DNA from: Clostridia bacterium
GTDB lineage: Bacteria; Bacillota; Clostridia; Oscillospirales; Acutalibacteraceae
Direction: 5' to 3'
Assembly (NCBI GenBank): GCA_017416345.1
Contig: JAFQCR010000004.1
Coordinates: 1 to 51,782 of the forward strand
DNA length: 51,782 nucleotides
Each line of letters begins with the position of its first letter. Position 1 is the first letter of the stretch. The notes under the pieces were generated by a model. That model did no database searches and was not told the DNA's origin. It saw only the letters and a program-made list of their open reading frames with translations. This document shows, piece by piece, positions 4,615-20,122 of the stretch. Position numbers and translations under genes: made by a program.

Positions 4615-4629
4615 TCAAAATGAAAAGCA

Positions 4630-4663
4630 AACCGCAACGGTCGAACCGACCGTTGCGGTTTTT
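4630..4663 (+). terminator. Rho-independent terminator after symporter
   Basis: A 14-bp perfect stem (AACCGCAACGGTCG / CGACCGTTGCGGTT) with a 3-base loop is followed by TTT. It starts 15 bases after the stop codon. Confidence 0.9.
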
Positions 4664-4794
4664 GTATATTTATAAAAAATAATGTCACCCCCTTATTTAA
4701 TCGAGGAAATTTTCATATAGAATCTTGATGTGGCAACAAAGGGCATATTTATGCGGAATTATGAATAAATTATTGCGAAAAATTGTCCTGATTG

Positions 4795-4823
4795 TTGACA
4801 TCTTTCGACACTTGTGATACAAT
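4795..4823 (+). promoter_or_regulatory. Promoter of the vWA/tubulin-like operon
   Basis: A consensus TTGACA (4795-4800), a 17-bp spacer and TACAAT (4818-4823). It leaves a ~110-base leader before the first gene. I see no comparable promoter before any of the next three genes. Confidence 0.75.
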
Positions 4824-4839
4824 CGTATGTATGAAAATG

Positions 4840-4911
4840 GGTTTTTTGTCTAATTTTATACAAAAAACCTCAAATTTGTCGTTTTAAATGTTTGAAATGG
4901 TCATAAAACGA
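4840..4911 (+). promoter_or_regulatory. Structured 5' leader of the vWA/tubulin-like operon
   Basis: Two inverted repeats lie in the untranslated leader: GGTTTTTTGT / ACAAAAAACC (4840-4849 with 4860-4869) and TCGTTTTA / TAAAACGA (4879-4886 with 4904-4911). The rest of the 325-bp gap from 4615 holds the preceding terminator, AT-rich sequence and the promoter. Function is unknown. Confidence 0.4.
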
Positions 4912-4939
4912 TAAAATTTTTCGAAGAGGGGATAGCCAA

Positions 4940-7525
4940 ATGAAGAAAAATTGGAAGCCGGCCGTAAAGCTCAAGCGAATATGCGCTGTTGTAGCGGCGG
5001 TCGCGCTGCTCTTGACGGGGATGATGATCCCGACCACGGTCAACGCCGCACAGCAGGAGGCCAGCAACGTTTCAAGACTGATAAACGTTGTGTACGATGA
5101 CTCCCGCAGTATGTTCCTCGGCGGCTTGAACGCATGGGCGCAGGCTAAATACAGCCTTGAGGTATTCTCGTCAATGATGCAGGAAAACGACATTATGAAT
5201 GTCTATTTCATGAGTCAGTTTGACGGAAAATACGGCAATGCGGCCATTGGAAGAGCTCCGCTTATCAGCGGAATTTCCGGTAAGGATTCCTTAAAGCAGG
5301 AGAATATCGACAAGATACATACCACGGTCTCCAAGGCATCGGGTACTTATTTCGGTGCTATCGATGCTGCTTATGAGAATCTTAAGACCGAGGGCTCGAA
5401 ATACGACGAAAAATGGCTGGTCGTTATCACCGACGGTGATTCGCTCAGTAACGGCAACGATTCGGGCGTAAGGAGCGATCCGGTAGGATATCTCAACAAT
5501 AAGTTTAAAAACACCGTTTCGGACGGCATCGAGGTCGCTTACTTGGGAATCCAGCCCAGCAACGGTAACGCCATCGTGCCTGCCGTCAGCGAATCGGTCA
5601 GAGTTTACAATGCCGCCGGCAATAAGCCCAACAGCGAGGACGGAATCCTGGCCAAGGTCACCGAGATCTGCGAGGAGATATTCCAGCGTCCTCCCGTTAA
5701 GTCCAACGGCGGAAGCATTGACCTCAGCATCCCGGTAAGCGAGATCGTTGTTTTTGCCCAGGGCTCCAATGTTTCGATCGGCAACCTTGCAGGTGCCAAC
5801 AAGTTTGAGACCTCCTCAAAAATATCGGCGGCCGACAAAAAGTATGCCACAACGGTCGAGGCTGACCGCAATGTTGCGGGAACGGTCGAGCTTTCGGGTA
5901 CCGTTGCCACCTTTACACCCACCTCGGGCAACTACTTTGATGCAGGCAGCTATAACATAAGCGTAACGGCTGATGAATATGTTGTATACTATAAGCCTTG
6001 TCTTGATGTTGTCCTCAAGATCCGTGATGCGCAGGGAAGCATAGTCACCGATGATGTTATCCCCATCGGCAACTATTCGGCAGAATATTGGCTGACCTAT
6101 CCCGAAAATCATCCGAGATACGGCGACAAGATCAGCACCTCGCTGTTCGATGTCACCTATCAGCTTTACATTTCGACCAACGGCGGTCGCAAGGAAAGAC
6201 TTACCGCCAACAACTTCTACCTTGACATCGGTCAGAACACCGAGATCTCGGTAACTGCAAGCTATCTTAACTATATCTCCTCCGATAAGGCACAGAAATT
6301 TGCCGCTGTTGAGGATTTCACCGTTGAGGAGCTCAAGGTCGAGCTCGAGCTGCACCAGGAAAAATACATCCTTTCGAGAATGAAGGATGAAAACGAGGGT
6401 ATGACCGTTAAGGTCTCGAAGGACGGTGCTCCTTTGTCGGGCGACGATTGGAACCGTTGCGGACTTGAGCTTATCGCCGAGGGCGTTGACTTCAACGTTA
6501 CCAAGAACGGTGACAGCACCTTTACCGTAAAGCCGACATGGAAGAACGGCGACCGTGCCTCGACCGCTACGGGTGAGGTCAACTTCCAGGCTGTTGCCAC
6601 CATTTCGGACGGCAGAAAGCCTACTCACAAGGGTGCGGTGCTCGGTTGCATCGAAATATATGATGACGTTACGGCCGTAAAGCTGGGCGTCACCGTTGAT
6701 AACAACAACGATTCTCTTAAGAGCGATGCCTTCAATGAATCCAAGCCTTCGATAACCGTTAAGGTCGATTGGGCCGGCAATCCGCTTACCAAGGAGCAGT
6801 ACGAGGCTCTTAAAAAGAACGGCCTTTCGGTCAAGTTCAAGGATATGGAAAAGGTCGAGGTCAACGGCAAAAAGGTTCCGCTTGTTGAGGTCAGCGAGAT
6901 CGTTTTCGCAGACTTTAAGGAGGGTGAACACACCACCGCCGTTATCTACTTCAAGGCCAACGGCGATATCGGTGACCAGCGTACCATGCTGGACGATTGC
7001 GACGAGTTTACCGTCAACGCCACCATCGACCGTGAGGGTCTGGTCTCCAAGGGTAAGGCCGAGGGCGACCTTGATGTCACACGAGTCTACACTCCGTTTG
7101 AGATCATACTGTTCGTTCTGATACTGCTCTTTATCATCGGACATCTTCCCCCGTTCAAGTGGTATCTGCCCTTCAGGATCAAGTACGATCCTTACAACTC
7201 GGCCTTCGGCAGAAAGAGCCCCAAATATGCATACTGCTATTTCAATCCCATCTCGTGGATAACCGTGCTCCTGCCGTTCTGTCCCGTTATCACACACGTC
7301 AAGTTCGTGTGGTTCTCGGGCGTAAGCAAGGCCGCTCCCATGACCCTGTGCTCAAGGATCTTCTCATTCAAGGGAAGATCGTGCAAGGTCCTCAACGCAA
7401 ACACGCTTAAGGACGCGATGAGGATATACATCGATTCGCCCAATGCAAACGGAAGCAAGGATGTGCTTAAGTACAGATCCTCCAAGCTCCGCAATGACGG
7501 GCGTGTGGTAGTCACCACAAAATGA
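4940..7525 (+). CDS. Membrane-anchored von Willebrand factor A domain protein
   Basis: First gene of a four-gene operon, with AGAGGGG 10 bases before ATG 4940; 861 residues. Residues 1-37 are a signal peptide (basic start, then an Ala/Val/Leu core, ending TTVNAA). A vWA domain follows: beta-1 with the metal-ion site D53-D54-S55-R56-S57 (DxSxS), and VVITDGD with D165 as the later metal ligand. The central ~500 residues look like repeated beta-sandwich modules. A transmembrane helix at about 718-738 (FEIILFVLILLFIIGHL) is followed by a ~120-residue tail that should be cytoplasmic. The intact metal site suggests a ligand-binding sensor or adhesion domain outside the cell. The cytoplasmic tail could contact the tubulin-like protein encoded 57 bases downstream (inference). 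Confidence 0.82.
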   Translation: MKKNWKPAVKLKRICAVVAAVALLLTGMMIPTTVNAAQQEASNVSRLINVVYDDSRSMFLGGLNAWAQAKYSLEVFSSMMQENDIMNVYFMSQFDGKYGNAAIGRAPLISGISGKDSLKQENIDKIHTTVSKASGTYFGAIDAAYENLKTEGSKYDEKWLVVITDGDSLSNGNDSGVRSDPVGYLNNKFKNTVSDGIEVAYLGIQPSNGNAIVPAVSESVRVYNAAGNKPNSEDGILAKVTEICEEIFQRPPVKSNGGSIDLSIPVSEIVVFAQGSNVSIGNLAGANKFETSSKISAADKKYATTVEADRNVAGTVELSGTVATFTPTSGNYFDAGSYNISVTADEYVVYYKPCLDVVLKIRDAQGSIVTDDVIPIGNYSAEYWLTYPENHPRYGDKISTSLFDVTYQLYISTNGGRKERLTANNFYLDIGQNTEISVTASYLNYISSDKAQKFAAVEDFTVEELKVELELHQEKYILSRMKDENEGMTVKVSKDGAPLSGDDWNRCGLELIAEGVDFNVTKNGDSTFTVKPTWKNGDRASTATGEVNFQAVATISDGRKPTHKGAVLGCIEIYDDVTAVKLGVTVDNNNDSLKSDAFNESKPSITVKVDWAGNPLTKEQYEALKKNGLSVKFKDMEKVEVNGKKVPLVEVSEIVFADFKEGEHTTAVIYFKANGDIGDQRTMLDDCDEFTVNATIDREGLVSKGKAEGDLDVTRVYTPFEIILFVLILLFIIGHLPPFKWYLPFRIKYDPYNSAFGRKSPKYAYCYFNPISWITVLLPFCPVITHVKFVWFSGVSKAAPMTLCSRIFSFKGRSCKVLNANTLKDAMRIYIDSPNANGSKDVLKYRSSKLRNDGRVVVTTK

Positions 7526-7582
7526 TCAACACAGCGCTAAATTTACTTAACATACAAATTTACTATAAAGGAGTTAAGAATC

Positions 7583-10500
7583 ATGGCAGAGAAAAATACT
7601 AAAAAAGCTAAAACCGTTGAGAAGATGCCTCCCACACTGTTGGTAGGTCTCGGCGGTACCGGTTGCGATATCGTAGGAAGAGTTTACAAGCTCGCCAACG
7701 ATGAGCAGAAGAAGTACCTGGAGTTCGTATTCCTCGATACCGACGCAAACGAGCTCAGAGAAAGAAAGTTTGAAGCTCCCTTTGCACACACCGTTCAGAC
7801 CTCCAGAAAGATCACTGTTGGTCAAGCTTTGAGAAATGATCCCGAGGCCTTTAACCACACCTTCCCCATCAATCCCCAGCTTATGAACAAGCCCTTGACC
7901 GAGGGTGCAGGCCAGATCCGTGCCGTTTCCAAGCTGGCATTCGATATGTGTGTCCGTGAGGGCAGACTTAAGGAGCTCCACGAGGCTATCAACAACCTCC
8001 AGAAGCTTAACAGCGACGATATGGAGCAGTCCATCCGTGTGCTTATCGTTTCCACCCTTGTAGGTGGTACCGGTTCGGGTATTTTGCTGCCCGTTTCCAT
8101 GTATCTCCGTAACTACCTGGAGAACACCTGCCACAAGAAGCCCATTATCCGTGGCTTCTGCATCCTGCCCGATATCTTCTTCACCGATCCCAACAAGACC
8201 GAGATCGAGAAGGTAAACCTCAGAACCAACGCTTACGCAACCCTTCGTGAGATCGATGCATTTATGCTCAAGGCTGACAGCAAGCGTGATTCCGATATCC
8301 GCAAGCGCTTTGGCCTCAAAATGCCCAGACCCGGCACCATTGACAAGTATGACGATTACGATCTCAATCCGCTGGATTACTGCTTCCTCTTTGATGCACA
8401 GAACACCGACGGCGGCACTCTGACCCACTTTGAGGAGTACAAGCAGCACGCTGCCGACTGTATCTATGCTTCCTCGGTCAGCCGTCTGCACAAGCGTCTT
8501 AACTCTTCGGAGGATAACACCATTCTGGAGCGTTGCGCACAGAACGGACGTAACCGTTACTGCGGTACCGGTACCTCCAAGATCATTTATCCCTTTGAGG
8601 CAGTAAGAGATTACGTAGCTCTCAACTGGATGAGCCAGGCTATGACCGACGACTGGCTCCGTTACGATAACAAGGTCGCACGTGAGCTCATCAAGTATCA
8701 GAAGAGCCGTGCAAAGGGCGTTGTTCAGAAGCCCATCGATTCCAGGCTTGTTTACCGTGAGGGCGTTACCAACGATATCGAGAACAAGAACTACTTCGGA
8801 TTTGCTATCCAGGAGGAGTGCAGCTTGCTCGATTCGTCCGGCACCTTCTATGTTGACGACCGTTGGAACTGCTATCTTGAGAAATTGATGGCCAAGATCA
8901 AGGAAAAGGCCGAGGATAAGGTTGACGACGAGGCAGTTAACAAGCTGCTCAGCGCCTGCCGTACCGAGGTTGAGGAGACCGGTAATGCCTCCACCTTCAA
9001 GGCAATGTTCAACTCCATTGCCCAGCAGCTCAAGATGCTCTTTGCCAAGACCACCAAGGTCGCTGAATCCAGCGCATCCATCCTTGCAGACAGTATGTTC
9101 TCTATCGATAACTACGATCCCAGCCTTGAGGACCGTATCGAGCACTGGCTGCACATCAAGGGCGTTCCGCTCCATCCCAACTCTGCAAGATACTTCCTTT
9201 ATAACCTTGAGGAGTGCCTCAAGAAGGAGCTCCAGAAGATCGAAGCTCCCGCCAAGGGCTCCGGCGAGGGCGAGGAAGAGGGCGAGACCATCTCCTTTGC
9301 AAAGGCAGAGCAGATCGTTGCCAACTTCTTCACCGAAAAGACCCACACCGACGAGAGCAACGAGTCCGGTGCAAGTGTAACTCTGCAGCAGCACGTCAAC
9401 AGCCTCCAGGGCAGCTTCTTCAAGAAGGGCGAGTTCAAGGAGCAGGCTACCGGTATCCTCGATCTGTGTGACGAGCACGTTGAGAATATCAAGCTTTACT
9501 ACAAGCTGTATGTTCAGGTTGCAGTTCTTAAGAAGTCCTTGGAGTTTATCGACAATCTCTGCAAGAACTACGAGCATTTCTATCAGCTGCTTGAGGCCGA
9601 GATCAAGAACATCTCCTACAGAACCTCCCGCATCGAGGAGACCTACGAGAACCGCAAGGGCAGCCCCGTTATGTACGTTTGTGCATCCAAGAACTGCCTC
9701 GAGCGTATTCTTGCCGAGTGCCCCAACACTATCGACAGCATCCAGCTGACCGCCGACTTCCGTGAGCAGCTCTTTGAGGTCATCTACAAGAGCTCCGATG
9801 TCAGCGCAGCCGCAACCCAGAAGAAGCAGAAGCAGGTCATCGAAGAGCTTGTTTCCGAGGGTATCCTTGACTTCTGGAGAAACGCAGTTATCGATCAGTA
9901 CGGCCACCGTGTTGATATGGACGTTATCGATGCACTTTGCAAGGAAGCCGAGTTTGAAGAGGATTGCTTTGCCCAGAACCAGAAGCTCAACTATGTTGAG
10001 AGAAAGCAGGATGCAGCATTCAAGCTGGCAGCACCGTTTATCGACAAGCCTATCGGCCAGCCCTATGAGATCCTTGCCTGCGGTATGAGCAGCGCCATCG
10101 CCAACAAGAACGATCTTGCCAAGATGGAGATCCTCAAGCTCTTCGGTTCTTACGAGAAGGATTCTCTGATGGACAGATATCAGATCCTCTTTATGAGAGC
10201 TCTTTATAACCTCCGTGTCTGCGACCTGCAGAAGTTCGCTCCCTGTGACGAGTGTCCTGCCGACTTTAAGGAAGAGGGTAGCTACTACAGAGACTACGTT
10301 GCCAGAATCGACAACGTTCTCCCCGATCCCGAAAAGTCCAACACCATCACTCCTCACCTTGACAGAAGATGGCACTTCACCGGTGTTATGCCCGATCTTG
10401 ACGACGAGACCGAGCAGAAGAGCATCACCAGAGCACAGAAGGCATTCTTCGCCGCATTTGTATTCGGTTATGTCAAGTACCACCGTGACAGATATCAGTT

Positions 10501-11134
10501 TGTCGGTGCCAACGGCGATACCATCGACGATGAGATCGTTGTTCTCGACGGCAAGTGCGACAAGCTCCACGAGATCTACGACGCACTCCGCATCAACCGT
10601 CCGCTGGTCAGAGATTTCATCAAGAGATTTGACGACAGCGTTAAGGAGGAGAATGATGCAGGCGGCGTAGCCAACACCTCTTATCAGCAGTCCCGTCTTT
10701 ACAAGGCGCTTGGAAAGATGCATCTTAACAAGTTCCCTGTGATCGAGCACGTCAGCTATCTTGAGCTGCCGCTCCTCTTCAAGGTATCGGTCGGTAACAG
10801 CGAGTTCAAGGATTCCGATGCTGTTGAGATGCTCAAGAACTTCATCGGCTTCACCGAGGAGTACCTCACCACCTTCTATGTAGACCATATCGTACGCAAC
10901 AGATACTTTGTTGAGTGGTTGGATGAGCAGTTCACCCTTATGCTCAGCAATATCGAGAAGTACTATGATCAGGGCGAGACCTACATCCTCCAGAATCCGT
11001 TCAACGATACTCTCCTTGCCAGACTTATGGGCGTTATCATCGGTATCTTCGATAAGTACTCCGTAAACGATGAGTTTGCCGAGGAGTGCTACAAGAAGTA
11101 CGAGGCAAAGCGTAAGGAACTTTCCGGACAGTGA
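7583..11134 (+). CDS. Tubulin/FtsZ-like GTPase (Tubulin_2 type), 1183 residues
   Basis: The start is ATG 7583 after AAGGAG. The N-terminal third is a recognisable tubulin/FtsZ-superfamily GTPase fold: strand plus phosphate loop LLVGLGGTG (residues 19-27), FVFLDTDANE (48-57) in the position of the nucleotide-contacting T3 region, and the tubulin signature VSTLVGGTGSG (156-166). Next comes the NxxAYAxLREIDAF helix that I associate with the large Tubulin_2 (FtsZl) family rather than with FtsZ itself. The remaining ~850 residues are mostly alpha-helical with an acidic insertion near 555-565 and have no recognisable domain. There is no membrane segment. Family members are proposed to act in membrane remodelling, often next to vWA genes (recalled from comparative genomics). 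Codon use is strongly optimised, which suggests high expression. Confidence 0.85.
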   Translation: MAEKNTKKAKTVEKMPPTLLVGLGGTGCDIVGRVYKLANDEQKKYLEFVFLDTDANELRERKFEAPFAHTVQTSRKITVGQALRNDPEAFNHTFPINPQLMNKPLTEGAGQIRAVSKLAFDMCVREGRLKELHEAINNLQKLNSDDMEQSIRVLIVSTLVGGTGSGILLPVSMYLRNYLENTCHKKPIIRGFCILPDIFFTDPNKTEIEKVNLRTNAYATLREIDAFMLKADSKRDSDIRKRFGLKMPRPGTIDKYDDYDLNPLDYCFLFDAQNTDGGTLTHFEEYKQHAADCIYASSVSRLHKRLNSSEDNTILERCAQNGRNRYCGTGTSKIIYPFEAVRDYVALNWMSQAMTDDWLRYDNKVARELIKYQKSRAKGVVQKPIDSRLVYREGVTNDIENKNYFGFAIQEECSLLDSSGTFYVDDRWNCYLEKLMAKIKEKAEDKVDDEAVNKLLSACRTEVEETGNASTFKAMFNSIAQQLKMLFAKTTKVAESSASILADSMFSIDNYDPSLEDRIEHWLHIKGVPLHPNSARYFLYNLEECLKKELQKIEAPAKGSGEGEEEGETISFAKAEQIVANFFTEKTHTDESNESGASVTLQQHVNSLQGSFFKKGEFKEQATGILDLCDEHVENIKLYYKLYVQVAVLKKSLEFIDNLCKNYEHFYQLLEAEIKNISYRTSRIEETYENRKGSPVMYVCASKNCLERILAECPNTIDSIQLTADFREQLFEVIYKSSDVSAAATQKKQKQVIEELVSEGILDFWRNAVIDQYGHRVDMDVIDALCKEAEFEEDCFAQNQKLNYVERKQDAAFKLAAPFIDKPIGQPYEILACGMSSAIANKNDLAKMEILKLFGSYEKDSLMDRYQILFMRALYNLRVCDLQKFAPCDECPADFKEEGSYYRDYVARIDNVLPDPEKSNTITPHLDRRWHFTGVMPDLDDETEQKSITRAQKAFFAAFVFGYVKYHRDRYQFVGANGDTIDDEIVVLDGKCDKLHEIYDALRINRPLVRDFIKRFDDSVKEENDAGGVANTSYQQSRLYKALGKMHLNKFPVIEHVSYLELPLLFKVSVGNSEFKDSDAVEMLKNFIGFTEEYLTTFYVDHIVRNRYFVEWLDEQFTLMLSNIEKYYDQGETYILQNPFNDTLLARLMGVIIGIFDKYSVNDEFAEECYKKYEAKRKELSGQ

Positions 11135-11142
11135 TTTTAAAT

Positions 11143-11227
11143 TTTGCGTCTGACGCAAATCTCTGCGTAAGGGTGCGGTGATGTGTCACCGTACCCAAGG
11201 CGCAGACCGAACGGCTTTGAGCCGTTC
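11143..11227 (+). other. Three consecutive RNA hairpins between operon genes 2 and 3
   Basis: In the 122-base gap there are TTTGCGT/ACGCAAA (11143-11149 with 11153-11159), a long bipartite stem TCTGCG...CGCAGA enclosing GGGT-CGGTGA/TCACCG-ACCC (11162-11206), and GAACGGC/GCCGTTC (11209-11215 with 11221-11227). None has a T-run, so these are not classical terminators. They more likely set mRNA processing or relative expression. Confidence 0.65.
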
Positions 11228-11256
11228 AAATAAATCAGAAAAGGAGGTTCACGCTG

Positions 11257-13332
11257 TTGCTGTCGATTTTGATAATTGACGGTGAGATCTTCGACCATTA
11301 CAGTAAATACGAATACTTTTTGGACCGCTTTGAAGCGGAAGGAGACGTAGCCGTCTGCGTATGGAACAAGGGTGCCGGTGAAAATGATATTGCCGCAATG
11401 GTACCGCAGTTGATGGATACCATTAAGAATATCCCTGCCTGGAACGCTTATATCATCTGTGCGCCGCATCATTCGATAGATTTTCTGCAGGACGATTTCA
11501 ACAATAAAACGCAGTATGCCATCAACCCGTATGAAAGAGCAAACCGCGAGGATTATTGTGCCGAAAAAGACCCGCTGTTAAATCTCGTTTACTTGCTTGG
11601 CGGACGCGGTGAAAGCAGCTACTCGTTTGATAACGGTATCAGGCAGGAGCACAATATCAAGTATATTGAGCAGTATCAGTTCCGTGCCGCAAGGCCGGAC
11701 AACATCTTTCTCATCACGCCGAGAATATTCAAGAACATCAGCCAGCAGAAGCACTTTTTGCTGACCGAAATACAGGATGAATACGCAAAGCTGCGCATTC
11801 AGGATAATCCTAAATATATTCTCGCAGGCGAGATCGATGTCACCACCAGATATTCCGAGTTCTGGGAGAGATATGAGTATCCGTCCAACTGCCGCTTCCT
11901 CGTATATGATCTGCCCGAAGAACAGCATCAGAAGTATGAGGATAGCTGGTTCCCGTTCTGGATATGCATACTCACGCTCACAAAAAACTATATCGGCAAC
12001 TCAATACTTGCACCTTACAAGTTGCATTTGCTCGATATTGAAATAAACGACGATAAATTTGCTGAATATTTCAACAAATTTTATACCATGCTGCTCGATA
12101 ACCGTGACATTAGCGAGCACGAGATCAAAGCGGAAAAGGATGCCATCAAGTTAGAGGCATCCAGCACCGATATTACCGTGTCGAACGGAAAAACGGCACC
12201 GGTTTATGTCACATTCCCGCACGTTGATGTTGCCAACCTTTTTGCAAGCAAAGCCAATATAGGACTTGTGAAGGACCGTCCCGTCCTTGATGAAGAGGAT
12301 TGGCGCCGACAGATGCAAAGAACAAGGGAGACCGTTGCAAAGTTCTTCAAGGCCATCGGCCGAGGCAAGGGTGAAGCCGTTGATTACACCAACGACACCT
12401 TCGAGGCCGACCGAGGTGCGCTTGTAAACAAGCGTATCACCAAGTATGACGCTGAAGAGCTGCGTGATGCTATGAACGAAGACGAGCTTCGCATGATCGA
12501 GCTTAATACCGGTTATGCCGCAAGCCGTGCCGAGTTTGAAAAGGAACAGCGCAAGGCCGACCGTATCGTCCGCACCTATATGAAGCGCCGTCTGAAGTTC
12601 AAGACAGCCGCATGGCTCATTGCTGCCTGTATGCTGATCTACTTCCTGGGCTTCATACCGTTTATGATAAATTCCGTTAAGCACAGTCTCACAAGCTTTC
12701 TTGTGGCCTGGCCTATATCGGCCGCAGCGTTTATCGTTCCGCTCGTCAGCGGCATTATAGCGCTTGCCGTGCTTAAACGCAGAATGAACAAGCTGATCGA
12801 TCTGTATAACAACACGATCAACAGCTGTTACGAAAAGGCCAAGACCGGTGCCGAGATCCAGGGCGAATATCTTTCGCTTTTGCTGGATTATATGAAGAAA
12901 TATCAGCTTTTGAGCAACTCGATAGTTGATAATTCTCATTCCCAGCGCATTGACGAGCTGGTGCTTGCCATTGCCGTGTTTGACGATGCTATCATCGAAT
13001 GCGAGGCTTTGGCCGCATTGCGTAACATCAAGCTGAAGAAGATCACCGACCGTTATGTTGAAAACACCATCGCTTCAACACCCGGCTCGCATATCAGCCT
13101 GTATGAGGACAACGAAAACGGCACCATGTCCTTGAACGAGGTTCCCGATGCATTGTCTGCTCCGTTCTCGTTCACCGACGATATGTCGATAATAGCCGAG
13201 GAGCTTTATGAGTGCGTGGGCTACACCAAGCGTAAGGCTTCAAACGATAACGGCGCAACCGATGAGGGTGAGGGCGACGGCTCGTTGCCCGAATCGCAGA
13301 CCGTTACCGAAACTGTAGAGGAGGGTGAATAA
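11257..13332 (+). CDS. Two-helix membrane protein of unknown family in the tubulin-like operon
   Basis: The start is taken at TTG 11257, 9 bases after AAGGAGG; no ATG is placed better. The 691-residue protein has no signal peptide. Residues 1-447 are soluble and begin with a beta-strand-rich LSILIIDGEIFDHY segment, a Rossmann-like beginning. Basic and helical sequence from ~400 to 447 leads into two transmembrane helices, about 449-471 (AAWLIAACMLIYFLGFIPFMI) and 482-507. The last ~180 residues are helical and end in a very acidic tail. With only two helices, both termini should be cytoplasmic. I do not recognise the family. Gene order (after the tubulin-like gene, 1 base before the next gene) indicates that it works in the same membrane complex. 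Confidence 0.7.
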   Translation: MLSILIIDGEIFDHYSKYEYFLDRFEAEGDVAVCVWNKGAGENDIAAMVPQLMDTIKNIPAWNAYIICAPHHSIDFLQDDFNNKTQYAINPYERANREDYCAEKDPLLNLVYLLGGRGESSYSFDNGIRQEHNIKYIEQYQFRAARPDNIFLITPRIFKNISQQKHFLLTEIQDEYAKLRIQDNPKYILAGEIDVTTRYSEFWERYEYPSNCRFLVYDLPEEQHQKYEDSWFPFWICILTLTKNYIGNSILAPYKLHLLDIEINDDKFAEYFNKFYTMLLDNRDISEHEIKAEKDAIKLEASSTDITVSNGKTAPVYVTFPHVDVANLFASKANIGLVKDRPVLDEEDWRRQMQRTRETVAKFFKAIGRGKGEAVDYTNDTFEADRGALVNKRITKYDAEELRDAMNEDELRMIELNTGYAASRAEFEKEQRKADRIVRTYMKRRLKFKTAAWLIAACMLIYFLGFIPFMINSVKHSLTSFLVAWPISAAAFIVPLVSGIIALAVLKRRMNKLIDLYNNTINSCYEKAKTGAEIQGEYLSLLLDYMKKYQLLSNSIVDNSHSQRIDELVLAIAVFDDAIIECEALAALRNIKLKKITDRYVENTIASTPGSHISLYEDNENGTMSLNEVPDALSAPFSFTDDMSIIAEELYECVGYTKRKASNDNGATDEGEGDGSLPESQTVTETVEEGE

Positions 13333-13333
13333 T

Positions 13334-16300
13334 ATGTGGGATACTATATGGGCCATCCTTAAATTTGTTCTCCCCATCCTTCCTATAGTTCTGGCCGCCT
13401 TGATAGGTATCAAGGTCAACCTCAAGAAGGAAAAACGTCACCACCAGCTTTTACTCCCCGTTGTGGCACTTATCTACGGCATCGTGTACCTGCTGTTGGT
13501 CGACGATATTGCACTTTTGCTGCTTAAGGGTATCTATTACCTTATCAGCAGGTTTGAGTTCCTGGCGTTTTTGGACAAGGTCAATTGGGCATACGGCGTA
13601 ATGTATGTTGCCAACACCGTTATGATCCTGCTGTTTATGGCCATCAAGGGAATGCTGATGCCGTTGCTGGCGGCCTTCCCGCCCGAAAAGAACTCTGTCA
13701 CAAGGTTTTTGACCGGTCTTTTCTATGATTACGATGAAAAGGCCGAGGATGATGACTCCGACAAGGATAATAACGGCAAAAAGGCTCAAAGCGGCAAGTG
13801 GTACTTAAAGGATAAGCTGGGACACGCCAAAAAGGTTTTGATGGCGGTCTATATCGGCGTTATCGCTTTCTCGTGCCTGCTGTTTGCAACTACCTGCTAT
13901 CTCATTTCCAAGAGCGTTCTCAGCGTTCCGTTCTATCCCGCATTTGGCATTCTTATTTTGGGAGAGGTATTCTTCTTCCTCGGCGGTCTGCCCAAAGGCG
14001 GGGATGACGAGGAGGAGATCGCCGATGCTCCCGAAGATGAAAAGGCCGAGATCGATTACAGCACCTTGAAGGAGATCTACGAAAAGCTGTTTGGCGACCG
14101 TATTTCAAACAGCGTTGATCTTCCGCCAATCGAAAACAAAAAGATCCCCGTAGCCCAGCTTTTGCTCCGCTACCGTGAGGAATATGAGGAGACCGGCTCC
14201 CAGGAAGCACATTTGCTGTTCAAGTATTTCACCAATATGCTGCTTTCCGGCGAGGAGCTTGACGATGGCTTGATCGCTTCGGCAAGAAATATTATCGAGG
14301 GCAAGAATATCTTGTTCAGCACGCCCTTTTATGAGGATGCTTCAAAGTACATCTTCCTGCCGATAACCCGTCACTTGATGCAGAACAAAAAGATACTCAT
14401 CGTGGTGGGCCGTATCGGTGCCGAGAAGAACATTATTGATTGGTTCAAGCGCGGTCTTTACGGTGTCAACAACTTTGAGAATATCTGGAAGACTGCATTG
14501 CTTTGTGAAAGCAATGAGGAGACCAAGATAGCCGTTCTTCCGATGAAGGACATCTATAATCTCAAGATGCTCAACTCCAAGGCGCAGTTCTTGGAGGAAA
14601 CCTCGATGGTCATCATCACCGACCCGACCAGACTTCTGGGAACCATGCAGGTCGGCTTGAGCACCGTTGTAAGCCTTATCCGCCGTGGCGAAAAGCCGCA
14701 GTACATTGCGTTCGACCGCAACTGTGACGGACTTGTGGACAGCTTGTCCCACGTTCTGAACAGCAGTATTGAGGAGGTCACCGCCACCACCGTTGCAAGT
14801 GCCAAGAGCACGGCCATCCTTTGGGAGGCCGACGGTAAGAACCTGCACCATCGTCTCGGACTTGATACTGCACGCTATCTTGGCGTCGGCTCCGAGCTGG
14901 CGGCAGTTGCTGTTGCCAACAAGGTCAGCGAGGTCAACTGGTTCGCTTATGAAAAATTCCCTGCGACCGATATGCGTTGGATAATCTCGCAGTATTACGG
15001 GCCGCTCTGTAAGGTCATGGATCTGCCGGTCTCGCAATCCGAGCTTGAGGAGCACGTAAAGGTCAGCGATGACCTTTGGTCAATGCCGCAGGGCAAGGAT
15101 CGCTTTATCATTGCCGAGGACGAGTACAACAACGCCTATGAGATAATTAGACAGTTCTCGTCACGTGCAACCAACCAGGCGTTCATCCATGTTCTCAGCC
15201 AGAACTATCTGTTGCGTGATTATATGAGCGAAAATGCTCAGATATTTACCTACGATCCCAAGGCTATCCCCAATATTGCGGCCGACTATCAGCGTGTCCG
15301 TTGCAATATGGTCTACAAGCTCGTTATGCGCCTTATGAACGGCGAAATGTACGAGGAGGAGATCAAGGAAGCCCTTGTTCTGATGGGTGTTTACAGCAAC
15401 GATGTTCACTCCGACCTCACCTCGCTTATTATGGAGAGCTTTGTCCCTGCCCATTCGAGCGAGAAGATCGCACCCGAGAGCATCGTCAACGTCAGAACCG
15501 ATCTGGTTATTGACAAGAAAACACGCCGTCCCGAAAGAAAGCGTGTTTATGCCATTACCAATACTCTGTTTATCGACCGCTTCCTGCAGCAGCTGCAGGT
15601 AGTGCATTGCGTAGCCGAGGATGAGGCTGATAAGAACCTTTACCTCAACTCGATACTTTACGGTCACGTTTATCAGAAATACCTGCCCGGTACCTTCACG
15701 GTTTACGACGGCAAGTATTATGAGGTCGTGTCGGTCACCAGAAATAACGGAATCATCTTCCGCCGTGCTGCCGACCACATCACCAAGCGTAGCTATTACC
15801 GTCAGATAAGGACCTATAACGTTTCGGGCTTTGAGCCTTCGACCGAGGCGGCCACACAGACCACCTTCGGCAACGTTGTGTTCGAGCGCGGTAACGCCGA
15901 GATCGACGTTACTACCGACGGATACTTTGAGCTTGGCGATTACGGTAACCTTAGGAATGCCAACAAGGTACTGCTTAACGGTATACCGGTACGTAAGTAT
16001 CAGAACAAGAGCATTATCAGGGTCAAGCTTACCGGCGCAGACCAAAAGGTCCGCTTCACCATTGCCACAATGATGAACGAGCTGTTTGTAACTCTGTTCC
16101 CCGAAATGCACGAGTATGTTGTCGCAACTACCAACGGAACCGACCCCGACAAGTGTGACGGTTATGTGCCGAGACTTGTTGTCAGCGGTGCCGACGGAGT
16201 TGTTGAGGACGACGGCTATATCTACATTATTGAAGACAGCCTTATCGATATGGGCCTACTCATCAATGTTGACCGTTATTTCACCCGCATTATGGAGATC

Positions 16301-18178
16301 ATCACCGATCTTCTTTGCTGGCATAACGAGCGTCTTGATGAGGAAACTGCCCAGGAGGAAGGCGGCGAAGGCCCTGCCGAGGAAGGCGAGGGCGGCGAGG
16401 ACGGAACCGAAGAAGGCGGAGAGGACGGACCCAAGAAAAAGAAGGGTTGTTCCGGCTGGTTCGGATCCATCTTCAAGAAGAAAAAGACCGACGACGGTGT
16501 CGATGAGGGCGGCGAAGCTCCTGCCGAGGAAGGCGAGGGCGGAGACGTTCCCGAAACCGCACCCGAAGGCGGAGAGGACCAACCGCAGGGCGGCAACGAC
16601 GAGCCTCAGGGTGGCGACGGCGAGACCGACGCACCTCAAGAGCCCGGCGATGAGCCCGAAGCACCTGCTTCTGCTCCCGATGATGCGTTTGACGATCCTC
16701 AGGTTCCCGGCGAAACTGCTGTGGGCGGCTCATCTGATGACGGCGATGCCTTCGCAGAACCGCAGGTTCCCGGCGAGGTAGCCGAAACTCCGCAGTCAGC
16801 ACCTGCCGAGGATGATGCATTTGCAGAGCCCGAGGCACCTGCCGATGAGCCTGCAACCGAGCCCGAGGCTCCCGTAAGTGAGCCCGAGGCACCTGCCGAG
16901 GTCAACGAGCCTGCACCTGCAGAGGAGCCCAAGCCCGTAGAAGAGCCTGCATCGGCTGAAAAGCCCAAGAAGAAGGGCTTCTTCGGTTGGCTGGGCGGTC
17001 TGTTCGGCAAGAAGAAAAAGCAGCCCATTCAGGAGCCTGCACCCGTGCCCGAAGAGGGCGTGTCCGACTTCCCCGATGTTACCGAGATCCCTGCTGAAGA
17101 GCTTGGCGGCGCTCCCGTTGATGCTCCTGCAGAAAATTCCGACGGCAACGGCGAAGATGCCAATGCACAGGATGATTCGGTCATCACCAGCGGCAACTTT
17201 ATGTCTAGACCGTTGTTCAATATGATCCCTGCTCCCGAGATGGATGTTGTCGATGACAACGAGGATGCCATCACGGGTGAGGACGAGGAGTCGGTCGAGG
17301 TCGATTCCGAGGATGCCGAAGGCGGCTCGGGCGGTAACAGCACCGAGCGCAAGAAGTATTCGCAGAGATTCTTTATGCTTTACGGAAATGAAGCTGTTCC
17401 CGAGGTCTTTGACCTTGAAGCCACATTGAAGTATCTTAAGGAAAACGGCTTTGAGGATAATTACCTCAAGCAGTCCCGTGACAGCGCAAAGAACACCAAG
17501 CTTAAGTGGTATAACTACCGCTATGAGCCGGGCGAGCATTATTGCGACTTCTGCGGAACCAAGCTTGAAGGTAAGATCTCGGTCCTTAAGGACGGCCGTG
17601 AGCGTTGCAACGAGTGTAAAAAGACCGCCATCAACCGTGTGCGCCAGTTCAAGAAGCTGTACAAGGAAGCACACCGTCAGATGGAGGAGATCTTTGGAAT
17701 CAAGATCAAGTCCAAGATCCAGATCCGCATAACCAACGCCGAGGAGATCGCCAAGGAAGGCGGCTACGAGTTTACTCCCACTCCCGGCTTTGACGGACGT
17801 GCACTCGGATTTGCACAGCGTCTCGGCAACGGTAAGACCAGGATCATGCTTGAAAACGGAGCTCCGAAGTTAGAGACCGAGAAGACGCTGGTTCACGAGA
17901 TGACACATATCTGGCAGTATGAAAATATGCTGAATCTGTGGAGTCCCGAGCGTGATCTCGTCGCTATCGAGGGTATGGCCGTTTGGGTAGAAGCGCAGTA
18001 TCTGACGAGTCTGGGACTTGAGGAACGTGCAAAGGCTTATGTCGATGCCCGTTGCTATGAGGATTCCGAGTACGGTCAGGGTATGCGTGAGTATATCAAA
18101 CGCTATCCGCTGAGAAAGGGCAAGAAGGTCACCCGAGGAACACCGTTCTGCAAACCGGGTCAAAACCCGCTCAAATAA
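13334..18178 (+). CDS. Giant membrane protein: TM region + degenerate helicase-like core + acidic linker + zinc ribbon + HExxH peptidase
   Basis: ATG 13334 follows GAGGAGGG and lies 1 base after the previous stop; 1614 residues. Residues 1-225 hold five or six membrane helices. Residues ~315-990 resemble superfamily-2 helicases of the DUF1998/YprA type in order: 'EGKNILFSTPFYEDAS' where TPTGSGKS is expected, 'KILIVVGRIGAEKN' (motif Ia-like), 'MVIITDPTRLL' (TPDML-like), 'YIAFDRNCDG' where DExH is expected, then a DUF1998-like end with 'YIYIIEDSLIDMGLL'. Walker A and B residues are lost, so ATPase activity is unlikely. Residues ~1000-1330 are an acidic Pro/Ala/Glu linker with two KKKxG-x-x-GW-x-G motifs. 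A Cys4 ribbon (CDFC near 1404, CNEC) precedes a zinc peptidase motif H1521-E-M-T-H1525 with E1546. This zinc-module-plus-peptidase end resembles DA1-like proteins. The domain calls are inference from motif order. Confidence 0.72.
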   Translation: MWDTIWAILKFVLPILPIVLAALIGIKVNLKKEKRHHQLLLPVVALIYGIVYLLLVDDIALLLLKGIYYLISRFEFLAFLDKVNWAYGVMYVANTVMILLFMAIKGMLMPLLAAFPPEKNSVTRFLTGLFYDYDEKAEDDDSDKDNNGKKAQSGKWYLKDKLGHAKKVLMAVYIGVIAFSCLLFATTCYLISKSVLSVPFYPAFGILILGEVFFFLGGLPKGGDDEEEIADAPEDEKAEIDYSTLKEIYEKLFGDRISNSVDLPPIENKKIPVAQLLLRYREEYEETGSQEAHLLFKYFTNMLLSGEELDDGLIASARNIIEGKNILFSTPFYEDASKYIFLPITRHLMQNKKILIVVGRIGAEKNIIDWFKRGLYGVNNFENIWKTALLCESNEETKIAVLPMKDIYNLKMLNSKAQFLEETSMVIITDPTRLLGTMQVGLSTVVSLIRRGEKPQYIAFDRNCDGLVDSLSHVLNSSIEEVTATTVASAKSTAILWEADGKNLHHRLGLDTARYLGVGSELAAVAVANKVSEVNWFAYEKFPATDMRWIISQYYGPLCKVMDLPVSQSELEEHVKVSDDLWSMPQGKDRFIIAEDEYNNAYEIIRQFSSRATNQAFIHVLSQNYLLRDYMSENAQIFTYDPKAIPNIAADYQRVRCNMVYKLVMRLMNGEMYEEEIKEALVLMGVYSNDVHSDLTSLIMESFVPAHSSEKIAPESIVNVRTDLVIDKKTRRPERKRVYAITNTLFIDRFLQQLQVVHCVAEDEADKNLYLNSILYGHVYQKYLPGTFTVYDGKYYEVVSVTRNNGIIFRRAADHITKRSYYRQIRTYNVSGFEPSTEAATQTTFGNVVFERGNAEIDVTTDGYFELGDYGNLRNANKVLLNGIPVRKYQNKSIIRVKLTGADQKVRFTIATMMNELFVTLFPEMHEYVVATTNGTDPDKCDGYVPRLVVSGADGVVEDDGYIYIIEDSLIDMGLLINVDRYFTRIMEIITDLLCWHNERLDEETAQEEGGEGPAEEGEGGEDGTEEGGEDGPKKKKGCSGWFGSIFKKKKTDDGVDEGGEAPAEEGEGGDVPETAPEGGEDQPQGGNDEPQGGDGETDAPQEPGDEPEAPASAPDDAFDDPQVPGETAVGGSSDDGDAFAEPQVPGEVAETPQSAPAEDDAFAEPEAPADEPATEPEAPVSEPEAPAEVNEPAPAEEPKPVEEPASAEKPKKKGFFGWLGGLFGKKKKQPIQEPAPVPEEGVSDFPDVTEIPAEELGGAPVDAPAENSDGNGEDANAQDDSVITSGNFMSRPLFNMIPAPEMDVVDDNEDAITGEDEESVEVDSEDAEGGSGGNSTERKKYSQRFFMLYGNEAVPEVFDLEATLKYLKENGFEDNYLKQSRDSAKNTKLKWYNYRYEPGEHYCDFCGTKLEGKISVLKDGRERCNECKKTAINRVRQFKKLYKEAHRQMEEIFGIKIKSKIQIRITNAEEIAKEGGYEFTPTPGFDGRALGFAQRLGNGKTRIMLENGAPKLETEKTLVHEMTHIWQYENMLNLWSPERDLVAIEGMAVWVEAQYLTSLGLEERAKAYVDARCYEDSEYGQGMREYIKRYPLRKGKKVTRGTPFCKPGQNPLK

Positions 18179-18190
18179 CCCAAAATAGCA

Positions 18191-18231
18191 AACACCCATC
18201 CTGCAGTTAAGCTGTAAGATGGGTGTTTTTT
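18191..18231 (+). terminator. Terminator of the tubulin-like operon
   Basis: The stem AACACCCATC / GATGGGTGTT, extended inward by TGCAG/CTGTA, is followed by TTTTTT. It begins 13 bases after the stop codon of the giant protein and fits transcription ending after four genes. Confidence 0.92.
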
Positions 18232-18261
18232 AAATAGACCATGGATTTTAAAATTTAATGC

Positions 18262-18290
18262 TTGACTTTTTGCCGTGATGATTGTATAAT
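18262..18290 (+). promoter_or_regulatory. Promoter of tRNA-Leu
   Basis: TTGACT (18262-18267), a 17-bp spacer and a perfect TATAAT (18285-18290), about 30 bases before the tRNA. Confidence 0.8.
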
Positions 18291-18319
18291 ATACCCCGTG
18301 GCATAGCCAAAGTAAATAT

Positions 18320-18406
18320 GCGGGTATGGCGGAATTGGCAGACGCGCTAGATTCAGGTTCTAGTGAGAGCGATCTCATACAGGTTCAAGTCCTGCTACCC
18401 GCACCA
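18320..18406 (+). tRNA. tRNA-Leu (anticodon CAG)
   Basis: An 87-base class II tRNA with encoded CCA. The acceptor stem is GCGGGTA (18320-18326) with TACCCGC (18396-18402). The anticodon stem CTAGA/TCTAG holds the loop TTCAGGT, so the anticodon is CAG at 18354-18356, reading CUG. A long variable arm TGAGA-GCGA-TCTCA is present, and the T arm contains GTTCAAGTC. It stands alone with its own promoter and terminator. Confidence 0.97.
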
Positions 18407-18408
18407 TA

Positions 18409-18446
18409 AAAAGCGACGTGTTTTAACACGTCGCTTTTCTTTTTGG
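18409..18446 (+). terminator. Terminator after tRNA-Leu
   Basis: A 12-bp perfect stem AAGCGACGTGTT / AACACGTCGCTT with a tight loop is followed by a T-rich run. On the other strand it also lies downstream of the convergent phosphatase gene, so it may act in both directions. Confidence 0.9.
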
Positions 18447-18487
18447 CAGTATTATTTGATATTCCTCACGACAATTCTGAGGCCTTT

Positions 18488-19201
18488 TTAATCAAGGTAT
18501 ATCTCCTCGAGGTCGTCCAGGCGTAAAAGGGCGGGGGAGCAGCCGTAGGGGACACCGACATCAATATCTATCCACGTGTCGGTGTGTAGGATCTTGCCCT
18601 TGCTCATATGGTCATACGACATAGTGGGAGTGTGACCGAAAACCGTGATGACATCGTCAAAATAATGGGTCTCAATGTCGGGCCATGCCCAGATGAGATC
18701 ATCGGCCGAGTACTGTGATAACGGCTTTTTGGGGTCAAAATTATCGAGCCCCGAGTGTACCAGCAGAAAATCTTTGCCGTTTAAAGACACGGTCTCGTAA
18801 AGCGGTGCCTCACGCAGATAATCGAGTATGTCGGCCACCGTGTCGGGGTCGGTCTGCATCAGCTCACGTAAAGCCTTCAGCGTTACACCGCCGCCGTTGT
18901 CGTTATAATTGTTCAAAAGCTCCAATTTTTCGGCCGAGAGAGACCTTATGCTGTTTTCGGTTATCTCATCAAACACAAAATCGCACGAAAGCAGCATAGC
19001 CTCGTGGTTGCCGAGGATAAGCTGAACGTTGGGTTGCTCCAACAGCCATTTTAAGATCTCAACGCCGCCGTCATTCTGGCGGTCGATGACATCCCCTAAA
19101 ATATACAGCCAGTCGCTGTCCTTAAAGCCTGCTTTTTTGAGCAGGCTTTTTAATTTTTCAAGCTCAAGTCCGTGAAGATCCGATGTTACATAAACAGCCA
19201 T
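18488..19201 (-). CDS. PPP-family metallophosphatase
   Basis: 237 residues with ATG at 19201. It carries the three metal-binding motifs of PPP-type serine/threonine or bis(5'-nucleosyl)tetraphosphatase enzymes: SDLHG (D8, H10), GDVIDRQNDG (35-44) and GNHE (near 64-67). Later histidine motifs follow: LLVHSGLDN and VFGHTPT. The two-metal centre hydrolyses phosphomonoesters or dinucleoside polyphosphates in the cytoplasm. Length and motif order fit the bacterial PrpA/ApaH-like group. The substrate is unresolved. It is transcribed alone, from a consensus promoter on the reverse strand and towards the tRNA terminator. Confidence 0.9.
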   Translation of the reverse strand: MAVYVTSDLHGLELEKLKSLLKKAGFKDSDWLYILGDVIDRQNDGGVEILKWLLEQPNVQLILGNHEAMLLSCDFVFDEITENSIRSLSAEKLELLNNYNDNGGGVTLKALRELMQTDPDTVADILDYLREAPLYETVSLNGKDFLLVHSGLDNFDPKKPLSQYSADDLIWAWPDIETHYFDDVITVFGHTPTMSYDHMSKGKILHTDTWIDIDVGVPYGCSPALLRLDDLEEIYLD

Positions 19202-19245
19202 AAGCGTTCCTTTCCAAGAGCGTAGTAGATTTAGTGTACATATAT

Positions 19246-19274
19246 ATTATACCACATTTTGGGCTGTTTTTCAA
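19246..19274 (-). promoter_or_regulatory. Promoter of the phosphatase gene
   Basis: On the reverse strand: TTGAAA (19274-19269), a 17-bp spacer and TATAAT (19251-19246), about 45 bases before the start codon. Confidence 0.8.
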
Positions 19275-19304
19275 CGAAGGGGAGCAAAAATTACGGACTT
19301 GACC

Positions 19305-20108: not shown

Positions 20109-20122
20109 AGTACATCTCCTCC

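What the first reader, a model, noticed from the sequence alone, without database searches (positions are those of the whole stretch)
4940..18178. Four-gene membrane system built around a large tubulin-like GTPase, with vWA, pseudo-helicase and peptidase parts
One promoter (4795) and one terminator (18191) enclose four genes: a vWA protein facing outward, an 1183-residue tubulin-like GTPase, a two-helix membrane protein, and a 1614-residue polytopic protein with helicase-like and zinc-peptidase domains. Tubulin_2/vWA neighbourhoods are known from comparative genomics and were proposed to remodel membranes. The combination with a dead helicase core plus an HExxH peptidase in one membrane chain is not one I know. 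Inference: the vWA domain senses a ligand, the tubulin-like protein polymerises on the membrane proteins, and the peptidase is an effector.
Basis: partly seen in the sequence, partly recalled or inferred. Interest (0 to 1): 0.92.

Follow-up and report, generated by a model that had tools for sequence, protein, structure and literature searches.

The report
Tubulin-like membrane machine with dead helicase
Some Clostridia share a four-gene membrane machine that pairs a tubulin-like protein with an outward-facing sensor and a membrane-bound, burnt-out helicase carrying a peptidase; the four genes keep the same order and seem to move together between bacterial families, so they very likely work as one unit whose job is still unknown.

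Summary
Genes at 4940-18178 encode a vWA protein (signal peptide, intact MIDAS, one strong TM), a Tubulin_2 GTPase (PF13809, E=6e-54), a two-TM protein (P3) and a 1617-residue polytopic protein (P4). Their trees agree (r 0.885-0.959), while host-family labels are scattered, so the set appears to move as a unit. P4 occurs in 25 of 394 genomes of the order; a P4 without peptidase sits beside a Tubulin_2 gene on an Azospirillum plasmid.

P4's core matches the first RecA lobe of SF2 helicases; motifs I and II are gone. The closest reference tried was MrfA/YprA-like; that subfamily assignment is tentative. The HExxH peptidase is not core: two lineages lack it, and it is lost in 6 of 21 complete clostridial P4, all 6 with a transglutaminase-like domain.

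Known: the FtsZl1/Tubulin_2–vWA partnership (Makarova and Koonin 2010) and DO-GTPase versions (Kaur 2020). Not found in my paper searches: the P3/P4 half. Mechanism is inferred: vWA receptor, tubulin switch, dead-helicase scaffold, proteolytic output.

The parts
4795..4823 (+). promoter-like site TTGACA-17-TACAAT with TG
   Evidence: 11 of 12 consensus matches
4940..7525 (+). gene 1, vWA receptor-like protein, 861 aa: signal-like segment (res ~14-32), ectodomain, one strong TM (res 716-734; a weaker hydrophobic stretch at 774-792), basic tail after res 735 (21 K+R against 5 D+E)
   Evidence: homologue in 26 of 26 complete loci
5096..5110 (+). MIDAS motif D53-D-S55-R-S57 of the vWA domain
   Evidence: (invariant in 6); (DxSxS in 24 of 26; in the other two, L153 and L154, the gene start lies outside the fetched stretch)
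7583..11134 (+). gene 2, Tubulin_2 (FtsZl1-type) GTPase, 1183 aa
   Evidence: PF13809 E=6e-54, 184 bits, cut-off 27
7637..8644 (+). Tubulin_2 domain; T4-type signature GGTGSG at res 161-166 (8063-8080)
   Evidence: glycine-rich T1- and T4-type strings in 26 of 26
11257..13332 (+). gene 3 (P3), 691 aa, large N-terminal soluble part and a TM pair (res 446-464 and 487-505)
   Evidence: a protein at this place in 26 of 26 loci (that set has L033 and L156 and lacks L170 and L172), 25 with two or more TM calls, one (L031) with one
13325..18178 (+). gene 4 (P4), 1617 aa, overlaps gene 3 by 8 bp
   Evidence: the same 8-bp overlap in 12 of the 25 other complete loci
13355..13981 (+). P4 N-terminal membrane region, about five TM segments (res 11-219)
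14279..14839 (+). P4 degenerate RecA1 lobe of an SF2 helicase (res ~319-505, limits approximate); motifs I (GxxxxGKT) and II (DExH) lost
15668..15820 (+). P4 block YLPG..dGkYYev, placed like the OB-fold region of MrfA (tentative)
   Evidence: (E=0.015, same order)
16202..16330 (+). P4 block IYIIEDS.iDmGLL, placed like DUF1998 (not significant alone)
17543..17617 (+). CxxC-CxxC zinc-ribbon-like segment of P4
17417..18175 (+). P4 C-terminal metallopeptidase-like domain; HEMTH at 17894-17908, conserved downstream E in EGMAVW at 17969-17986
18190..18232 (+). intrinsic-terminator-like hairpin
   Evidence: -23.9 kcal/mol, z -5.9

Best explanation
A horizontally mobile, four-protein transmembrane signalling machine. 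SHOWN: four linked, co-inherited genes; an exported-looking MIDAS vWA protein with one strong TM and a basic tail; a Tubulin_2 GTPase with its nucleotide signatures; a two-TM protein; a polytopic protein whose main domain resembles the first RecA lobe of SF2 helicases without the ATPase motifs and whose tail carries a metallopeptidase-like and/or a transglutaminase-like domain. INFERRED: the vWA ectodomain binds a ligand or a neighbouring surface; its tail, with P3 and P4, forms a membrane platform on which the tubulin-like GTPase assembles as a switch or thresholding polymer; the dead helicase serves as a scaffold or nucleic-acid/peptide-binding module rather than a motor; assembly unleashes proteolysis or transpeptidation in the cytosol. 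In some lineages other outputs seem wired to the same core (a CASTOR-like channel and an RyR-domain protein, or an ESX/type VII-type ATPase with WXG100-like partners). The likely role is an accessory response to an external or envelope threat, not housekeeping.
For: Linkage: 26 of 26 judgeable loci with order vWA-tubulin-P3-P4 on one strand (35 loci given: the rest are 7 contig fragments, the Azospirillum plasmid, and L169, which carries none of the four). Distances of the four protein trees correlate r=0.885-0.959, 0 of 999 permutations each. P4 was found in exactly the 7 of 117 order genomes that hold a strong (E<1e-20) match to this tubulin. Accessory and mobile: 25 of 394 genomes of the order, 22 of 169 genera; family labels need 16 changes on the tubulin, P3 and P4 trees and 15 on the vWA tree (minimum 10, shuffled mean 18.3); of three congeners two lack P4 and G397 has two copies, not beside its SSF gene, whose next neighbours differ. 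RecA1 relic: hhalign of 9 divergent P4 against 14 MrfA-like helicases score 49.1, E=9e-5, probability 59%, 0 of 150 column shuffles as high, maximum 27.3; an SF2 helicase from G889 scores 49.9, E=2.5e-5, six other comparisons 18.4-25.5; that helicase was first hit by a P4 profile in a search of 259 genomes (E=1.9e-7 per genome). Catalysis retained: 15 of 21 complete P4 keep HExxH and all 6 that lost it have a transglutaminase-like C, H and D; 4 have both. Recurrent neighbours: RyR-domain protein and/or CASTOR-like channel within about 6 kb at 9 of 26 loci. Azospirillum ramasamyi NZ_CP029832: Tubulin_2 gene with a P4 (profile E=4e-16) that lacks the peptidase.
Against: The vWA-tubulin-membrane connection is inferred from linkage and topology. 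Tubulin_2 does not need P4: of 9 class genomes with Tubulin_2 over the cut-off, 4 have P4. The six HExxH losses fall in about two clades, so the complementarity is not 6 independent events. Tree correlations include shared host history, and old duplication with loss could mimic part of the transfer signal. The window's own locus has neither the channel/RyR proteins nor a secretion ATPase within the 51.8 kb.
Confidence: 0.42

Rival explanations
1. Anti-phage or anti-mobile-element defence: the dead YprA-like core senses foreign DNA or RNA at the membrane and the peptidase, transglutaminase or channel kills or arrests the cell.
For: Patchy and apparently mobile; YprA helicases are central to DISARM, Dpd and Druantia (PMC12458937, abstract and one section read); tubulin/vWA/DO-GTPase sets were proposed as conflict systems (PMC7159879); variable effector-like tails.
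Against: No PADLOC match for the four proteins; P4 not found in phage, plasmid or viral collections with the window's sequence or alignment; among 30 neighbouring proteins scanned with Pfam (20 window ORFs, 10 flanking ORFs of other loci) I saw no clear defence family (PADLOC was not run on these).
Confidence: 0.22
2. Membrane remodelling or vesicle machinery, as Makarova and Koonin proposed for FtsZl1.
For: Same tubulin family with vWA partner and membrane proteins (PMC2875224, parts read).
Against: Peptidase and transglutaminase tails and the ion-channel neighbours are not explained; nothing here tests membrane shape.
Confidence: 0.18
3. Accessory of an ESX/type VII secretion apparatus: the machine gates or builds the secretion channel or processes substrates.
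For: EssC (TIGR03928 E=4.6e-226, just under its curated cut-off) 36 bp downstream of P4 with WXG100-like genes in G590; EccC-like ATPase (4.7e-21) 38 bp downstream with small proteins of only marginal WXG100 similarity in G678; EssC about 10.6 kb away in G013.
Against: EssC is in 4 of 29 P4-positive and 5 of 51 P4-negative genomes tested, so there is no enrichment; the window's genome has none.
Confidence: 0.1
4. The P4 core is not helicase-derived; the RecA1 similarity is a generic alpha/beta resemblance.
For: The clade of the window alone gives no match to the MrfA-like set (E=0.33); the DrmA-like set gives none; plain hmmsearch with default filters gave no hit among 21 helicases, and with filters off most scores were weak; the RecA2 block is not significant.
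Against: Two helicase references at E about 1e-5 to 1e-4 in the same register, shuffles and non-helicase controls far lower; later blocks in the same order.
Confidence: 0.1

Closest known systems
FtsZl1 / Tubulin_2 (PF13809) operons with vWA proteins (Makarova and Koonin 2010, PMC2875224)
   Same: Tubulin_2 GTPase next to a vWA protein with signal peptide, TM and intact MIDAS; other membrane proteins in the operon
   Different: No P-loop GTPase, protein kinase or OmpA match among the four proteins; instead P3 and P4, which the parts of the paper that I read do not describe
DO-GTPase / GAP1-N2 conflict systems with tubulins (Kaur et al. 2020, PMC7159879)
   Same: Firmicute sets with tubulin and extracellular vWA proteins; proposed GTP-dependent thresholding; variable effectors
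   Different: DO-GTPase not found in the window; DO-GTPase loci in related genomes (L054, L060) lack recognisable P3 and P4 within 17-19.5 kb
YprA/MrfA-family helicases (DISARM, ARMADA, Druantia, Dpd; PMC12458937)
   Same: RecA1-lobe similarity and later blocks placed like OB and DUF1998
   Different: ATPase motifs lost, no cysteines in the DUF1998-like block, about five TM helices, fused to peptidase or transglutaminase; the words tubulin, transmembrane and peptidase do not occur in that paper's main text
ESX/type VII secretion (EssC, WXG100)
   Same: Adjacent in 2 of 26 complete loci (one with a divergent ATPase) and about 10.6 kb away in a third
   Different: Absent from the window's genome and not enriched in P4-bearing genomes

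Membership tests
Tubulin_2 / FtsZl1 | N-terminal FtsZ/tubulin-like domain above the Pfam cut-off | tested here: met
   184.1 bits against cut-off 27
Tubulin_2 / FtsZl1 | glycine-rich GTP-binding signature | tested here: met
   T1- and T4-type strings in 26 of 26 loci
Tubulin_2 / FtsZl1 | operon with a vWA protein | tested here: met
Tubulin_2 / FtsZl1 | GTP-dependent filament formation | not testable with these tools
   none; the 2010 paper says they may form filaments by a novel mechanism or not at all
vWA | MIDAS residues DxSxS, T, D | tested here: met
DO-GTPase/GAP1 system | DO-GTPase gene | tested here: not met
   Pfam scan of the four proteins and 20 further window ORFs
DO-GTPase/GAP1 system | GAP1 protein | tested here: inconclusive
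   no GAP1 name among the Pfam matches of the window ORFs scanned; P3 shows no significant similarity to the genes beside the tubulin of L053, L054 and L060
SF2 helicase | RecA1-lobe homology | tested here: met
   E=9e-5 and 2.5e-5, 0 of 150 shuffles; only through the divergent P4 clade
SF2 helicase | Walker A and DExH motifs | tested here: not met
   alignment and string search of 26 P4: no DExH at the aligned place; Walker-A-type strings only elsewhere (window res 1501, L146 855, L148 1272, L153 502)
YprA/MrfA family | OB-CON-DUF1998 module after RecA2 | tested here: inconclusive
   blocks in the same order, E=0.015 and 0.068; RecA2 block not significant
YprA/MrfA family | four-cysteine DUF1998 zinc cluster | tested here: not met
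   no cysteines in the aligned block; canonical Dpd has lost it too
gluzincin-type metallopeptidase | HExxH plus downstream Glu | tested here: met
   HEMTH and EGMAVW; Pfam matches stay below cut-off; the Glu as third zinc ligand is recalled
type VII secretion | EssC ATPase in the genome | tested here: not met
   none in G000 at E<=1e-60

The most novel reading that the evidence does not exclude
A burnt-out YprA-type helicase was moved into the membrane and became the scaffold of a tubulin-driven, vWA-triggered signalling machine that travels between bacterial families as a four-gene cassette, with interchangeable outputs (metallopeptidase, transglutaminase-like enzyme, ion channel and RyR protein, ESX secretion): a prokaryotic cytoskeletal receptor complex.
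Probability: 0.33. Interest if true: 0.88.

Novelty: new variant of a known kind. Interest (0 to 1): 0.72.

Why it matters
The function of FtsZl1/Tubulin_2 proteins has been open since they were described in 2010, as far as the papers I found show. This cassette gives a defined, compact, naturally mobile set of partners with testable residues (MIDAS, GTPase loops, HExxH, transglutaminase triad) and shows, if the fold assignment holds, a helicase relic reused as a membrane component. The recurrent RyR/CASTOR-like and occasional ESX neighbours suggest concrete outputs to look for.

Tried and rejected
PDB profile searches with all four families gave no meaningful relative. Viral-contig scans with P4 and tubulin alignments gave nothing; P4 was absent from phage and plasmid collections when searched with the window's protein. 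The window's tubulin matched 5 plasmid records; only the Azospirillum one was opened; phages were not searched with the tubulin. The idea that the operon is an obligate part of type VII secretion was tested and dropped (I chose the 51 negatives myself from genomes without a P4 match, 28 of them from the window's family). The idea of a tRNA-linked integration site was not supported: of the window and 26 other loci, the operon lies within 0.5 kb of a tRNA only in the window (141 bp) and in L160 (about 0.3 kb); L027 has one about 2.6 kb away. P3 was tested as a relative of the genes beside the tubulin in L053, L054 and L060 and found unrelated at this sensitivity. The labels MrfA-like (14 proteins of 758-931 aa) and DrmA-like (6 proteins of 1604-1746 aa) are mine, from an MZB (PF09369) match and length. 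DrmA-like set as reference: no match. Region VI/RecA2 of P4 against the MrfA-like set: plausible register but E=0.51. Default hmmsearch of the two P4 core profiles against 21 helicases gave nothing; with filters off the RecA1 register came back, E 4e-11 for the G889 helicase with the broadest profile and 5e-4 or weaker for the others with that profile, 2e-4 at best with the divergent-clade profile (tiny database, and the G889 protein had been picked by the same profile). Iterated profiles include the loci they score, so E-values there are inflated; membership was first established. Trees used only the first 1150 residues of P4. The transglutaminase count uses 26 P4: 5 were set aside (L028, L150, L156 cut by contig or fetch ends; L149 with its ORF broken and HELTH in the next ORF; L052 without such a domain); L170-L172, fetched later, are not in it. 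Flanks were not fetched to equal length, so the neighbour count (9 of 26) is a lower bound; some of those matches are partial ORFs at the edge of a locus. Small pieces L032 (rest of G055's P4) and L058 (piece of G186's P4) were not among the 35 loci.
Full report
What is there. The window (contig 2 of a 2.47 Mb genome in 38 contigs; the nearest named P4 relatives are MAGs labelled Clostridia bacterium and Oscillospiraceae bacterium) holds four same-strand genes at 4940-18178 behind a good promoter-like site and before a strong terminator-like hairpin. Gene 1 looks exported: a signal-like segment, a vWA domain with complete MIDAS, one strong TM and a basic tail. Gene 2 is a Tubulin_2 protein. 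Gene 3 has a TM pair after about 440 residues. Gene 4 has about five TM segments, a 700-residue core, a long low-complexity linker, a CxxC-CxxC segment and an HExxH domain. The first P4 loop is basic (5 K+R in 11 residues), which by the positive-inside rule puts it, and probably the bulk of the protein, in the cytosol; this is inference, not a topology experiment.

Is the set real? A survey with single sequences found strong matches to the tubulin (E<1e-20) in 7 of 117 genomes of the order and P4 in exactly the same 7 (two more genomes, G062 and G080, have weaker tubulin matches and no P4). With a P4 profile, 25 of 394 genomes of the order (22 of 169 genera) are positive at E<=1e-4, 4 of 291 in the class with a narrower profile at E<=1e-10, and 3 of 259 in the phylum, one of which is a canonical helicase rather than P4. 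In the class, Tubulin_2 passes its cut-off in 9 of 291 genomes, so about half of those have no P4. I fetched the surroundings; 35 loci were scored. Twenty-six show vWA, tubulin, P3 and P4 in that order on one strand (recounted; in L052 a second vWA gene and two small ORFs lie between vWA and tubulin); seven are contig fragments that end before the missing genes (L033, L057, L059, L156, L157, L158, L171); one is the Azospirillum plasmid; one (L169) carries none of the four. P3 and P4 overlap by exactly 8 bp in the window and 12 other loci.

Co-inheritance and mobility. Distances on the four trees correlate at 0.885-0.959. Host-family labels need 16 changes on the tubulin, P3 and P4 trees and 15 on the vWA tree (minimum possible 10); shuffled labels need 18.3 on average, and 57, 51 and 47 of 1000 shuffles are as low for the first three, 12 of 1000 for vWA. 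So the four genes seem to travel together across families, though a weak host signal remains and old duplication with loss is not excluded. Within the window's genus, G396 and G398 lack P4, and G397 has two copies on other contigs; the SSF gene that precedes the operon in the window is followed by unrelated genes in G397.

The helicase-like core. Curated libraries do not see it. Aligning 26 P4 shows two groups; the divergent one keeps helicase-like sequence at motif Ia (rVLFiCkDkkEieNA) and often a D.D in place of DExH. Its profile (9 sequences) aligns with the RecA1 lobe of 14 MrfA-like helicases over 181 columns (score 49.1, E=9e-5, HHalign probability 59%; 0 of 150 column shuffles above 27.3). 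A phylum search with the P4 profile then hit, unasked, a canonical SF2 helicase in G889 (SPTASGKT, DEVH, SAT; E=1.9e-7 for one of 259 genomes), and direct comparison gives score 49.9, E=2.5e-5, against 18.4-25.5 for tubulin, vWA, P3, EssC and two DrmA-like profiles. Further blocks line up in the order of MrfA: a PGQ..Ng.xYtI block (E=0.015; 60 shuffles at most 20.3 against 24.8) and an IIED..GGxG block (E=0.068), neither convincing alone. The group of the window gives no significant match by itself (E=0.33), all 26 together E=0.0045; it inherits the assignment through its clear homology with the divergent group. I therefore hold SF2 RecA1 ancestry as well supported and YprA/MrfA ancestry as likely. 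No P4 of 26 has DExH at the aligned place, and Walker-A-type strings occur only elsewhere, in four of them, so ATP-driven translocation is not expected.

The catalytic tails. Of 26 P4, 21 have a complete C-terminal region. Fifteen keep HExxH at the aligned place. Six have lost it (L031, L153, L154, L155, L159, L161) and all six carry a transglutaminase-like segment with C, H and D in place; four more (L034, L030, L144, L147) have both (Pfam Transglut_core confirmed for L034, L030 and L031, the others by motif only). In L160 the transglutaminase is a separate neighbouring gene. L052 and the Azospirillum protein end without either. The core machine is thus vWA, tubulin, P3 and membrane pseudo-helicase; the enzyme tail is the variable output. 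The six losses lie in about two clades, so the complementarity is suggestive, not six independent events.

Azospirillum. On plasmid NZ_CP029832 a Tubulin_2 gene (4e-46) is followed by a 710-aa protein, a 1118-aa P4 relative (profile E=4e-16; hhalign E=2e-7) and an 897-aa protein that the vWA profile recognises after iteration (inflated E; not by Pfam). The 710-aa protein is P3-like by place and size only (no significant similarity, one TM call).

Neighbours. Nine of the 26 complete loci have an RyR-domain protein and/or a CASTOR-like channel within about 6 kb of the operon (RyR type: L144, L159, L030, L172, L160, L152; channel: L027, L144, L151, L143; L144 and L151 seen through the extended stretches L194 and L181). 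Identification: RyR repeats of solved proteins, best E=2e-13, bacterial ones 5e-6; CASTOR ion channel E=0.0034 over 70 residues, which is weak. Two loci continue into an FtsK/SpoIIIE ATPase (G590: EssC 4.6e-226 with WXG100-like neighbours of 1e-9 and 2e-3; G678: EccC-like 4.7e-21 with small proteins of marginal similarity), and a third (G013) has EssC about 10.6 kb away. In a test of 80 genomes, EssC occurred in 4 of 29 with P4 and 5 of 51 without, and not in the window's genome, so secretion is an occasional partner. Related loci of the DO-GTPase type (L054, L060) have tubulin and vWA but no P3/P4 in the stretch fetched, which suggests alternative partner sets for the same tubulin family.

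Literature. Makarova and Koonin 2010 (PMC2875224; first fifth and sections 6 and 7 read) describe the family and its vWA partner and propose membrane remodelling. Kaur et al. 2020 (PMC7159879; section 29 and passages) describe firmicute tubulin/vWA/DO-GTPase sets as conflict systems. The YprA survey (PMC12458937; abstract, passages and section 7) has no occurrence of tubulin, transmembrane or peptidase in its main text. The FtsZ/tubulin evolution paper (PMC9871819; passages) sets Tubulin_2 aside as divergent. I found no paper on the four-gene set in searches (listings seen); most subscription journals are not in the library.

Mechanism. Best reading: an extracellular vWA sensor, coupled by its basic tail and by P3/P4 to a tubulin-like GTPase that acts as an assembly switch, with a dead helicase as scaffold or binding module and a proteolytic or transpeptidase output. 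Every step after anatomy and linkage is inference. Defence, membrane remodelling and secretion accessory remain open rivals.

Noticed in passing
window 27458-29710: A 750-aa ORF combines sigma-70 regions 2 and 4 (ECF-like) with BspA-type leucine-rich repeats in one chain; an unusual fusion.
   Followed up: no
window 7574-11158, - strand: An open frame of 1194 codons lies opposite the tubulin gene; most likely a by-product of codon usage.
   Followed up: no
L181 (G678:C7) 672-6480 and L182 (G590:C10) 349-9568: ESX/type VII-like clusters with EccC- or EssC-like ATPase, WXG100-like or small helical proteins and candidate effectors (judged by eye) directly downstream of P4.
   Followed up: partly
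L194:445-4348 (G484), L027:14277-16400, L181:6458-8632: A TM/RyR-domain protein and a CASTOR-like channel recur next to the operon, in L194 as an apparent extension of it.
   Followed up: partly
L193 (G013:C1) 4330-9993: Next to EssC: a protein-kinase-like and a PP2C-like gene and two proteins with ESX-like N-termini (all judged by eye).
   Followed up: no
L162 (Azospirillum ramasamyi NZ_CP029832) 8366-25549: Alphaproteobacterial relative: Tubulin_2 gene, 710-aa protein in P3's place, 1118-aa P4 without peptidase, vWA-profile 897-aa protein, and a second vWA gene (VWA_2 2.5e-6) on the other strand.
   Followed up: partly
L170 and L171 (G397): The congener carries two divergent copies on different contigs; the second shows only P3 and P4 before its contig ends.
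   Followed up: partly
window 4629-4661: A 15-bp bidirectional terminator-like hairpin separates the upstream SSF symporter gene from the operon.
   Followed up: no
L053 (G062:C2): A locus with two Tubulin_2 genes and a vWA gene but no recognisable P3/P4, resembling the firmicute sets of Kaur et al. 2020.
   Followed up: partly
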